A stretch of DNA of 64,000 nt from Clostridium tyrobutyricum DSM 2637 = ATCC 25755 = JCM 11008 (lineage in GTDB: Bacteria; Bacillota; Clostridia; Clostridiales; Clostridiaceae), in assembly GCF_000359585.1 (NCBI RefSeq), contig NZ_APMH01000009.1, positions 1 through 64,000 of the forward strand, in the 5' to 3' direction. Numbering within the stretch: the first letter of the stretch is position 1; each line of letters starts with the position of its first letter. Positions 1-23,009 of the stretch are shown here, in pieces. The translations under genes and the position numbers were made by a program. The notes below the pieces were generated by a model that was not told the DNA's origin, ran no database searches, and saw only the letters and a program-made list of their open reading frames with translations.

Positions 1-25
1 TCTATTGACTTTTACTAGCTGGTCT
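1..25 (+). mobile_element. End of a second IS110-family element, running off the left edge
   Basis: Read on the minus strand, the last 25 bases begin AGACCAGCTA, differ at three positions, then continue AAGTCAATAGA. This matches the end of the complete IS110 element at about 21086-21110 (AGACCAGCTA then AAGTCAATAGA, same spacing). The carboxypeptidase reading frame is conserved up to exactly this point and then loses family resemblance, as expected for an insertion junction. By analogy the transposase of this copy would lie to the left of the window on the plus strand. Only 25 bases are visible, so this is an inference from a short but well-aligned match. Confidence 0.55.
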
Positions 26-20860: not shown

Positions 20861-21267
20861 TTCACCTGTATTAAATTATTTACATGGGAAATCTTATTCT
20901 ATCGTAACAAAAATAATAGGAAAAAGACGTACAGAGCTTGTAAATACATGGCTTATAGGCACTCAAATTTCTATATAATAACTATTTTATATGATATAAT
21001 ATATACGAGAGTATAAATATTTTTTAGTTAGTCACCTCCCGGAATTTATCTCTTGCAAAGAGGTCGTTACGGTAATTGACAGCAGAGACCAGCTATGATA
21101 AGTCAATAGATTTCATAAAAAATTATAATATTTCGAGTTATATTTTTGTTTATTATGAAATGTTAAAAATAAATAATATGGTATCATTTTTGGGCAAAGC
21201 AAATAAACTATTAAACAATTAATAGTTAAAATTTTACATAGAGTTATTAATATAGTTATAATATTGC

Positions 21268-22440
21268 TTAGTTAATAGGGGTATAATCTCTTTTATCTCT
21301 CATGACAGCAAAAACAATACGTGTTAATTTATTAGCTGTGGCTCCTACAGCAACTAAATGATGTTTTCCCTCATTTCGCTTTTTATTATAATATTTATTA
21401 AGAGGACTATCATGAAGGACACATGTTGAAGCAGCTAAAAACAAGGCACGTCTAAGATACGGTGAACCTCTTTTAGACATTTTATTGTTATTAGATACAA
21501 ATTGTCCTGATTGCTTAACAGTAGGATCAATTCCAGCATAAGCTACAAGACTAGAAGAATTCTTAAAACGTTTAATATCCCCAATTTCACTAAGAATAAT
21601 AGCAGCAGTGACGAAACCAATTCCAGGAATAGTTGTTAAATGAGAGTTAAATTGATTATAATAAAACTCAATTTCTGAATCTAGAGATTTCATTTGTTTT
21701 TCAAGAAATAGTATTTGACTAATAAGTTGTTTTATTTGAAATTTAAAAGCTTCTTTGGCTATCTTAATACCAAAAGTGTTTTTAGCTGCATTTTGAATCT
21801 CTTCAGCTTTATTAAAACCAAGTCTCCCCTTACTTTTTGTTTTCAATAGTTCAGTTAAATCATTTATACTTAACTTCAGTATTCCTTCTGGAGTTTGACA
21901 CTTTTCAAGGACAGCTTTAGAACTTACACCCCAGATATCAGAAAATAATTTATTATATTCTGGAAAAATTTGATCAAGTACTGTAGTTATTCTGCATTTA
22001 AGTTCAGAAATTTCAGTAGTTAAAGAAAGTTTATATCTGCAAAGTTGTCTTAGAGCAAGAATTTTATCATCACAAAGTTTTGTATTAGTAAATTTACCGA
22101 ATCTAATAACTTCTGCAATTATAAAAGAATCTTTAGTATCGTTTTTGGTTTTACGAATATACAAATTTCTAAAGCTATCAGATTGAATAGGATTAATAAC
22201 GTTTATCTCATATCCTTTTGTCATTAAAAATGAATATAATGAAAGCCAATAATGACCTGTAGCTTCAAGTCCAAATATAACTTTAGAATTGCGAGTATAT
22301 TTTTTTATATGTTCAATTAATTTATTTCCACCATTATGGGAATTAGTAAATTTTATAGATTTGCCAATTATAGAACCAGTATCATCAATAATAGTAGCTT
22401 CATGATTATTTTTACCAATATCAACACCAACAATATACAT
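21268..22440 (-). CDS. IS110-family transposase (DEDD recombinase)
   Basis: 390 residues, full length. The N-terminal RuvC-like DEDD domain shows VGVDIGK (D7), GLEATGHYW (E59), and KNDTKDSFIIAE (D101, D104). A coiled-coil middle leads to the Tnp_2 domain with IPGIGFVTAAIILSEIGDI and the serine motif SKRGSPYLRRALF (S326, probable nucleophile). It carries out RNA-guided cut-and-paste recombination in characterised relatives. No frameshift, so it may be active. Confidence 0.93.
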   Translation of the reverse strand: MYIVGVDIGKNNHEATIIDDTGSIIGKSIKFTNSHNGGNKLIEHIKKYTRNSKVIFGLEATGHYWLSLYSFLMTKGYEINVINPIQSDSFRNLYIRKTKNDTKDSFIIAEVIRFGKFTNTKLCDDKILALRQLCRYKLSLTTEISELKCRITTVLDQIFPEYNKLFSDIWGVSSKAVLEKCQTPEGILKLSINDLTELLKTKSKGRLGFNKAEEIQNAAKNTFGIKIAKEAFKFQIKQLISQILFLEKQMKSLDSEIEFYYNQFNSHLTTIPGIGFVTAAIILSEIGDIKRFKNSSSLVAYAGIDPTVKQSGQFVSNNNKMSKRGSPYLRRALFLAASTCVLHDSPLNKYYNKKRNEGKHHLVAVGATANKLTRIVFAVMRDKRDYTPIN

Positions 22441-22581
22441 AAAAAGTCACCTTCATTTAAAAGATTATTTAGATAGAATCCTCTCACATATGCAAGTTAC
22501 ATCCTAGTTTGATATACGAAAAATTGTAAAAATACAATTAACATCCAGCTTATACGCAACATCTCGCAAAGAAGAGGTAGC
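22441..22581 (-). ncRNA. Candidate bridge RNA of the IS110 element
   Basis: The 140 bases upstream of the transposase, inside the element, have no reading frame but hold hairpins such as AATTGTATTTTTACAATT on the minus strand. In IS110-group elements the guide (bridge) RNA is encoded here. The minus-strand transcript would contain AGCUGG (22550-22545), exactly complementary to CCAGCT at the element end (21089-21094), as expected of a donor-binding loop. Extent and structure are inferred, not measured. Confidence 0.5.
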
Positions 22582-22732
22582 AGTCTCTGCTCCGAGGTCA
22601 AAAAGCCTCATGGGGGTGGGCGTAAACCTCTATCTATACGAGAATATTGTCTCAAAAGATGAGTTATTAAACAATAGTTATATAAATGAACTTTAAAGCT
22701 ATAAAGATATTATATAGATTAAAGCTTTAGGC

Positions 22733-22810
22733 AGGAAAACTATTGTTTAATGTTTACATGTTTATCATACTAGGAAAACTATTGTTTAATGTTTACATGT
22801 TTATCATACT
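22733..22810 (+). repeat. 39-bp tandem duplication before a small membrane-protein gene
   Basis: Two exact copies of a 39-bp unit (22733-22771, 22772-22810; each begins AGGAAAACTATTG and ends TATCATACT) lie directly before the ribosome site AGGAGGTGG. The duplication extends the reading frame artificially upstream. It changes the leader of the following gene. Confidence 0.9.
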
Positions 22811-22823
22811 AGGAGGTGGCAGC

Positions 22824-23009
22824 ATGGGCGGATATATTGTTATTACAGCTATGGTATGTGTTACTGTAGTTGGTATAGTGGGTATTTTTTCTACACTCGC
22901 ATACTTAAAAGAAAGAGCTATTCTTAAATATAAGAACAGCTCTAAATTTAACGATAATGAAATTTCAATTACCGTTGATGATAACAAAGATAAAAACTCA
23001 AAAAACTAA
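22824..23009 (+). CDS. Small single-pass membrane protein, unknown function
   Basis: 61 residues from ATG 22824 (site AGGAGGTGG). One membrane segment (about 2-26), then a basic stretch and an acidic tail (DDNKDKNSKN). Its leader holds the tandem repeat and, further up, the compact structured sequence into which IS110 inserted. Not recognised. Confidence 0.6.
   Translation: MGGYIVITAMVCVTVVGIVGIFSTLAYLKERAILKYKNSSKFNDNEISITVDDNKDKNSKN

What the first reader, a model, noticed from the sequence alone, without database searches (positions are those of the whole stretch)
21086..22583. Complete IS110 element with a candidate bridge RNA whose guide matches the element end
The transposase is intact (D7, E59, D101/D104, S326). 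The 140-base non-coding stretch before it, inside the element, would give a minus-strand RNA containing AGCUGG (22550-22545), the exact complement of CCAGCT at the element's other end (21089-21094). The related end at the window edge also keeps CCAGCT. Established: IS110-group elements use bridge RNAs encoded beside the recombinase gene. Inferred: this RNA is one, and the match is its donor loop. A six-base match can occur by chance.
Basis: partly seen in the sequence, partly recalled or inferred. Interest (0 to 1): 0.7.

Follow-up and report, generated by a model that had tools for sequence, protein, structure and literature searches.

The report
Bridge-RNA IS110 element, toxin-tip relatives
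The finding is a real RNA-guided jumping gene, longer than first thought, and some close relatives of it in other bacteria carry toxin ends that are fitted in frame onto toxin proteins, which I did not find described in the papers I searched.

Summary
The element is real but longer than stated: 21088-22810 (1,723 bp), with AG (minus-strand CT) on both sides. Unoccupied leaders and a 93%-identical element present five times in genome G003 fix its ends. The recombinase is an intact IS110-type enzyme; its catalytic serine aligns at S311, not S326. The 370-nt left end encodes an IS621-like bridge RNA: besides the noted AGCUGG it has target guides, a right donor guide and handshake bases fitting this element's own ends and site. 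In 33 of 44 aligned elements (window included) all four guides match their own partners better than in any of 20,000 shuffles; 15 of 32 named RNA pairs show changes on both sides.

The surprise is the clade. In nine relatives the right end lies 0.65-3.1 kb beyond the recombinase, with genes between; none did outside the clade (0 of 39). In seven, the right end reads TSY(V/E/G)KS and leads a toxin-like C-terminal domain in frame, six of them behind long carriers (Rhs, weakly VgrG-like, WXG100). I propose bridge-RNA-guided toxin-tip loading. Against it: target-guide fits there are modest, three of nine recombinases are broken, nothing was tested at the bench. The window copy is cargo-free.

The parts
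21088..22810 (-). complete IS110-group element, 1,723 bp (LE at the right, RE at the left in window orientation)
   Evidence: core positions computed; LE start common to five G003 copies; unoccupied leaders
21086..21087 (-). core dinucleotide CT (AG on +) at the RE side
22811..22812 (-). core dinucleotide CT (AG on +) at the LE side
21268..22440 (-). DEDD/Ser recombinase, 390 aa; D7, E59, D101, D104, S311 aligned to IS621
22470..22636 (-). conserved core of the bridge RNA (closing stem, target loop, donor loop), 167 nt; true transcript ends unknown
22612..22619 (-). left target guide CCACCCCC; matches left target CCACCTC plus core C in 7 of 8 positions
   Evidence: 6 of 7 scored without the core
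22585..22592 (-). right target guide GAGCAGAG; 4 of 4 scored positions match the right target
22583..22584 (-). handshake bases AC after the right target guide; complementary to donor bases GT at positions 6-7
   Evidence: second base by eye
22504..22514 (-). right donor guide UAUCAAACUAG; 10 of 11 pairs with LE start CTAGTATGATA (by eye; 2 of 2 in the scored test)
22502..22503 (-). handshake bases GA after the right donor guide; complementary to target bases TC at positions 6-7
   Evidence: second base by eye
21101..21106 (-). -35 box TTGACT in RE (half of a junction promoter)
22803..22808 (-). -10 box TATGAT in LE; 17 nt from the -35 box only when the ends are abutted in a circle
   Evidence: no such promoter in the linear form
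22733..22810 (-). first 39 bp of LE present twice in tandem, exact; the G003 copies have it once
21088..21219 (+). RE open frame TSYDKSIDFIKNYN... (44 codons): same start as the toxin-tip linker of relatives, no toxin domain recognised
20999..21085 (+). right-target flank: conserved leader with an anti-Shine-Dalgarno segment, cut from its gene by the element
22813..23009 (+). left-target flank: Shine-Dalgarno GAGGTGG and a 61-aa ORF from 22824 that looks like a small membrane protein (by eye; no Pfam hit)

Best explanation
An IS110-group insertion sequence that works like IS621. Shown from sequence: the boundaries, an intact DEDD/Ser recombinase, and a left-end RNA whose first loop matches the insertion site and whose second loop matches the element's own joined ends. 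Inferred from established IS110 work: the element leaves as a circle, joining RE to LE builds a promoter (TTGACT-17-TATGAT), the bridge RNA is made and loads the recombinase, and the complex inserts the circle at a CT core. Here it entered the leader of a small gene, between the leader and its Shine-Dalgarno sequence. Clade-level inference: in near relatives the same machinery carries extra genes between recombinase and RE. In seven elements from seven genomes these are a toxin-like C-terminal domain and a small following ORF, and the RE is itself the coding linker, so insertion gives a toxin carrier a new tip and pushes the old tip aside. The window copy has lost, or never had, such cargo.
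For: Boundaries. Recombinase. RNA fold. Guide covariation, 33 elements: LTG-LT 4.70 of 7 against 3.11 shuffled; RTG-RT 2.76 of 4 against 1.33; LDG-LD 5.97 of 6 against 5.21; RDG-RD 1.82 of 2 against 1.02; 0 of 20,000 each. Handshake: the donor-loop base is complementary to target base 7 in 29 of 33, including A opposite T in L035 where the others have G opposite C. Cargo: 9 elements with RE more than 400 nt beyond the stop, against 0 of 39 non-clade loci with a detectable RE. In-frame tips: 7 of 7 in phase 0 with 105-187 open codons inside the element; 6 of 7 with 144-1,968 open codons outside in the same phase; other phases close within 23 codons. Domains: EndoU in two tips, Ntox30, DUF6883; carriers Rhs, weakly VgrG-like, WXG100; displaced Tox-GHH, AHH, WHH and TNT. 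A clade of 9 tree rows, 6 with cargo, window inside, support 100/99.
Against: No transcript, circle or transposition was observed. The single-sequence fold is only modestly better than shuffles (z -1.96; 7 of 200 fold as well), and neither its minimum-energy form nor the RNAalifold consensus (28 pairs) equals the proposed structure throughout. Guide fits are imperfect: LTG 0 of 7 in L208 and 1 of 7 in L107; RTG 0 of 4 in L035 and 1 of 4 in L182, L108, L114; RDG 0 of 2 in L193, L211, L212; one of five G003 copies has a poor left target. In the toxin-site members themselves (L174, L175, L177, L178, L179, L180, L182, L183) LTG matches only 3-5 of 7 and RTG 1-3 of 4. The handshake base opposite donor T7 is A in 20, G in 9 and T in 4 of 33, while d7 never varies. 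The RE pattern admitted only AG(C/T)T(G/A)G ends, which lowers the weight of the LDG test. Recombinases of three of nine cargo elements are broken (L182, L183, L052). The window copy carries no toxin cargo, so the tip part rests on relatives.
Confidence: 0.92

Rival explanations
1. An ordinary IS110 element whose non-coding end holds no guide RNA; the hexamer match is chance and the element recognises its target by protein alone.
For: CCAGCT is frequent in this window (30 against 16.0 expected); the single-sequence fold is only z -1.96.
Against: All four guides covary with own ends and targets; helices covary; the architecture is that of IS621.
Confidence: 0.03
2. An IS1111-type element with its RNA in the right end.
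For: A 7-bp inverted repeat TATCATA/TATGATA flanks the donor core in the window copy (by eye), as long as the shortest IS1111 repeats given in PMC11208160.
Against: LE (370 nt) is longer than RE (180 nt); the conserved RNA lies in LE; the repeat is about 5 bp in G003 and shorter in others looked at (by eye).
Confidence: 0.03
3. The toxin tips of relatives are not cargo: the elements merely landed beside existing toxin modules, and what I call RE is a conserved piece of the toxin genes.
For: Orphan tips lie next door; three loci with related recombinases lack a detectable RE (L176, L181, L192).
Against: The same kind of RE with core CT ends cargo-free and non-toxin elements (window, G003, L052). 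EndoU tips 70% identical follow carriers without detectable similarity. The start of the L174 Ntox30 tip (17 of 18 residues) follows an unrelated carrier in L219. Rhs carriers like that of L174 lose similarity within two residues of its RE and go on with other tips (L295-L297).
Confidence: 0.12
4. The cargo is passive: captured by faulty recombination and kept by chance, without selection for tip exchange.
For: Non-toxin cargo in two members (G003: Nim-like reductase, radical SAM, B3/4, SMR; L052: ANT(6)-like) shows varied genes. In L178 the tip follows only six outside codons, L225 is decayed, and three of nine recombinases are broken.
Against: Seven of seven toxin cargos are open in the same phase through RE, and six of seven sit behind long open carriers in that phase.
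Confidence: 0.33

Closest known systems
IS621 and the IS110 group with bridge RNA (PMC11208160, outline, five sections and passages seen; PMC11208158, passages seen)
   Same: DEDD/Ser recombinase, RNA in LE, two loops each stem-left guide-stem loop-right guide, CT core, handshake bases, junction promoter.
   Different: Recombinase distantly related (PDB hits about 9e-23); LE 370 nt; members of the clade carry genes, of which the parts I saw say nothing.
ISEc11 and ISEc21 seekRNA elements (PMC11187229, passages seen)
   Same: RNA-directed site choice by IS1111 and IS110 types; added cargo (catA1, mCherry) can be moved.
   Different: There the cargo was added in the laboratory; here it is natural and, in seven elements, in frame.
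Polymorphic toxin systems (exchangeable C-terminal domains on Rhs, CDI, T7SS and VgrG carriers; general picture recalled, domain names)
   Same: Carrier, C-terminal toxin domain, small following ORF, orphan tips next door.
   Different: Exchange is usually ascribed to homologous recombination (recalled); here the tip is encoded inside an RNA-guided element with a defined end.
IS492 and other reversible IS110 insertions (recalled)
   Same: Insertion and precise excision switch a host gene.
   Different: Here insertion would add a new domain, not only disrupt.

Membership tests
[quoted passage not shown]
   both Pfam domains; D7, E59, D101, D104, S311 align with IS621
IS110 family, IS110 group | LE longer than RE, with bridge RNA in LE | tested here: met
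   LE 370 nt, RE 180 nt (coordinates); conserved RNA in LE
IS110 family, IS110 group | insertion at a short core, CT, shared by target and both ends | tested here: met
IS110 family, IS110 group | target and donor loops complementary to target and donor | tested here: met
   exceptions listed under evidence against
IS110 family, IS110 group | promoter formed by abutted RE and LE | tested here: met
   TTGACT-17-TATGAT across the junction, consensus only; activity not tested
IS110 family, IS110 group | RNA-dependent recombination and circular intermediate | not testable with these tools
   needs an experiment
IS1111 group | RNA in RE and RE longer than LE | tested here: not met
IS1111 group | sub-terminal inverted repeats of 7-17 bp | tested here: inconclusive
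   7 bp in the window copy; shorter in relatives looked at (by eye)
Polymorphic toxin (for relatives, not the window) | known toxin domain at the C-terminus of a carrier | tested here: inconclusive
   named toxin domains in 3 of 7 tips (EndoU twice, Ntox30) and DUF6883 in a fourth; no domain in the L182, L183 and L035 tips
Polymorphic toxin (for relatives, not the window) | downstream immunity gene | tested here: inconclusive
   a small ORF follows each of the 7 tips; 4 of 7 were scanned, none with a Pfam hit; a SUKH protein follows the displaced tip of L176

The most novel reading that the evidence does not exclude
A clade of IS110 elements in clostridia acts as RNA-guided toxin-tip loaders. 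The bridge RNA aims at the start of toxin C-terminal domains (coding GVSN/GVGE-like motifs), the right end doubles as coding linker (TSYxKS), donor site and -35 box, and insertion swaps the toxin's tip and brings its small partner gene while the old pair is kept downstream and could return on precise excision. The same chassis also carries other cargo, such as Nim-like and ANT(6)-like genes. (Odds lowered from 0.55 on checking, because the strict target-guide fits of these members are only 3-5 of 7 and 1-3 of 4.)
Probability: 0.5. Interest if true: 0.9.

Novelty: new variant of a known kind. Interest (0 to 1): 0.74.

Why it matters
For the window alone this is one more bridge-RNA element, with an unusually complete reading of its guides from sequence. 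For the clade, it would be a natural use of bridge RNA beyond self-propagation: targeted, frame-keeping delivery of a protein domain, and a mechanism for how polymorphic toxins exchange tips. It also shows natural cargo on IS110 elements, of interest for genome engineering, and makes the idea directly testable with a harmless reporter.

Tried and rejected
Rfam gave no match in the element at gathering score; two sub-threshold matches nearby are chance. Phages: 2 distant protein matches; plasmids: 79 records, all below 60% identity, not followed; E. coli genomes were not searched. The RE pattern found 19 places in 13 of 206 genomes of the family, reversed control 0, and 10 places in viral contigs; of these only L235 has a recombinase of this clade, three (L233, L240, L241) have 36-37% relatives, so the pattern is not clade-specific. 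L225 (G050:C8) looks by eye like a decayed EndoU cassette with a broken frame. A phylum sample (398 genomes) gave no further member of the cargo clade. Two further viral-contig scans gave relatives of at most 49% identity. (plasmids) was aimed at the wrong stretch of L174 (a flank, not the recombinase) and is not used. A first bridge-RNA alignment had three rows on the wrong strand and was replaced.

Rows dropped before the covariation count: 11 of 44 aligned (L117, L119, L099 misaligned or decayed; L036 left target off contig; L173, L187, L194, L199, L201 no LE found; L176, L203 no RE found). In 7 of the 33 kept rows (L205-L208, L210, L108, L114) I shifted the LTG by one position because the stem-loop start shows the alignment to be off by one there, decided after seeing the sequences; for L035 the LE, for G003 the RE and for L108 the choice between two LE candidates were set by hand. 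Tree: 31 proteins made, 3 dropped (L179 and L182 cut short by stops, L201 misread); L183 and L052 never entered; so 6 of the 9 cargo elements are in it. The tree tool flags L035 as a long branch whose place is unsure and warns of long branches meeting.

Papers: searches (open-licence PMC papers only; no preprints), judged by listed titles and abstract starts. None shows IS110 elements carrying toxin tips. Opened: PMC11208160 (outline, five sections, passages), PMC11208158 (passages), PMC11342252 (passages), PMC11187229 (passages). This does not exclude prior description elsewhere.

Full report
The element. The recombinase ORF (21268-22440, minus) is a typical IS110 enzyme with PDB relatives ISCro4 and IS621 (E about 9e-23). 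The stated right end, 22583, is inside the element. DNA similarity to relatives runs on to 22695. Five copies in G003, identical over 4,601 nt, share their left end from CCTAGTATGATAAAC; the same letters, read on the minus strand, start at the right-hand core in the window. Six unoccupied relatives of the flank were printed; four read GACAGCAGAG|GAGGTG and two differ slightly. The element is therefore 21088-22810, flanked by AG (minus-strand CT) on each side. Its LE has its first 39 bp doubled, which the G003 copies do not show.

The RNA. The IS621 papers (PMC11208160 sections 5, 6, 7, 12 and 21; [quoted passage not shown] The window LE fits it: LTG CCACCCCC against CCACCTC plus core C; RTG GAGCAGAG against CT-CTGCT; LDG AGCUGG against AGCTGG; RDG UAUCAAACUAG against CTAGTATGATA (10 of 11, by eye); handshake AC against donor GT and GA against target TC. 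On 18 homologues the named helices reach 93.5% paired cells, 15 of 32 pairs with double changes, and far exceed slid versions. RNAalifold alone gives 28 pairs, 10 with double changes, which share the inner helices of both loops but not the closing helix.

Covariation. I aligned 44 upstream regions, could define both ends for 33, and compared each guide with its own and with shuffled partners. All four exceed every one of 20,000 shuffles; with one row per distinct guide (23, 23 and 13 rows) the result is the same. Shuffles do not remove relatedness, so these are not exact probabilities, but the donor changes are visible lineage by lineage (CTAG/CUAG, CTGG/CCAG, CTCG/CGAG, CTTG/CAAG). Exceptions are listed under evidence against.

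The target. The window copy sits between a conserved leader and the Shine-Dalgarno sequence of a small gene. The leader part was matched in 7 of 12 other genomes of the genus searched and in two further genomes. In G006 (a C. ljungdahlii contig, judged by the equal contig length of L037) and in one of five G003 copies a clade member is in the same kind of leader, and G010 has an RE there.

Cargo. In most relatives the RE lies within about 240 nt of the recombinase stop: of 42 loci, 8 had no detectable RE, 26 a near one and 8 a far one; L035 makes nine far ones. In one search, of 49 loci outside the clade 39 had a detectable RE and none was beyond 400 nt; the two sets may overlap. All nine far ones have recombinases (or recombinase pieces) at least 57% identical to the window enzyme; in the tree the six of them included fall in one clade of nine rows with the window (support 100/99). 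Recombinases of L182, L183 and L052 are broken. G003 carries a Nim-like flavoprotein, a radical SAM protein, a B3/4 protein and an SMR transporter; L052 an ANT(6)-like protein; the Nim and ANT(6) names are below the NCBIfam cut-offs, though the domains pass Pfam's. These are descriptions, not tests of resistance.

Toxin tips. In the other seven (L173, L174, L175, L178, L182, L183, L035) an ORF opposite the recombinase runs from outside through the RE into the element; its first element codons read TSYVKS, TSYEKS or TSYGKS. Phase 0 is open for 105-187 codons inside in all seven, and for 144-1,968 codons outside in six; in L178 the outside part is only six codons. The other phases close within 23 codons. 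Controls in the same call: in 11 elements outside the clade no inside frame exceeds 56 codons; on the outside L193 has 317 open codons in another phase and L189 61 in phase 0. Among cargo-free clade members L180 has 108 outside codons in phase 0, L177 six and L179 ten. Tips include EndoU (L173, L175), Ntox30 (L174) and DUF6883 (L178), 4 of 7 with a hit; carriers include a 2,100-aa Rhs protein, a weakly VgrG-like protein (below cut-off) and a WXG100 protein. Beyond LE lie displaced domains, 4 of 10 scanned with a toxin-domain hit: Tox-GHH (L174), AHH (L179), WHH (L173), TNT (L183). The EndoU tips are 70% identical although their carriers show no similarity; among six carriers the only similar pair is L175-L183. 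In L219 the first 18 residues (17 identical) of the L174 tip follow an unrelated carrier, where the contig ends. A search with the end of the L174 carrier found 9 places in 7 of 200 genomes, its own among them: three Rhs carriers 68-72% identical (L295-L297) lose similarity within two residues of the RE and go on with other C-termini; a second copy beside L295 stops at residue 104 of 108, two weaker ones (L298, L299) at 92 and 106, and two (L300, L302) part already after about residue 33-35.

Reading. The simplest account is that an ancestral IS110 element began to carry genes behind its recombinase, that its RE can serve as a coding linker because one frame of the fixed donor site and -35 box is open, and that a bridge RNA aimed at the start of toxin C-terminal domains makes insertion a tip exchange. 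How tips are captured is unknown. The window copy is a cargo-free member with a 44-codon remnant-like frame in its RE; whether it lost cargo cannot be told.

Literature. None of nine full-text searches listed a paper on this. PMC11187229 moved added cargo with ISEc11 (passages); the word toxin does not occur in the main text of PMC11208160.

Noticed in passing
window 20999-21085 with 22813-22830; L014, L015, L016, L017, L041, L050: A conserved leader with a segment complementary to the Shine-Dalgarno sequence (GCCACCTCC / GGAGGTGGC) before tiny genes, repeated in related genomes and without an Rfam match in this window; may be an uncatalogued regulatory leader.
   Followed up: partly
window 22733-22810: The first 39 bp of LE are doubled exactly, from core CT to a CT at position 40, giving two right-donor sites; could be a product of the recombinase using an internal CT.
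   Followed up: partly
window 1-25: Right end of another IS110 element at the contig edge; the same 21-nt RE motif ends an element on contig C1 of the same genome (L132), so probably a second family member.
   Followed up: partly
L125 (G003) and L052 (G006): Natural IS110 cargo: Nim-like reductase, radical SAM, B3/4 and SMR genes, and an ANT(6)-like gene; resistance not tested and NCBIfam cut-offs not reached for the Nim and ANT(6) names.
   Followed up: partly
L175, L177, L178 and L179 flanks: Orphan toxin modules that begin with DRLCPK or end their outside part there; some are occupied by clade elements, suggesting a second preferred right target.
   Followed up: no
window 15242, 43510, 57645, 62246: Guanidine-I, purine, SAM and azaaromatic riboswitches.
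   Followed up: no
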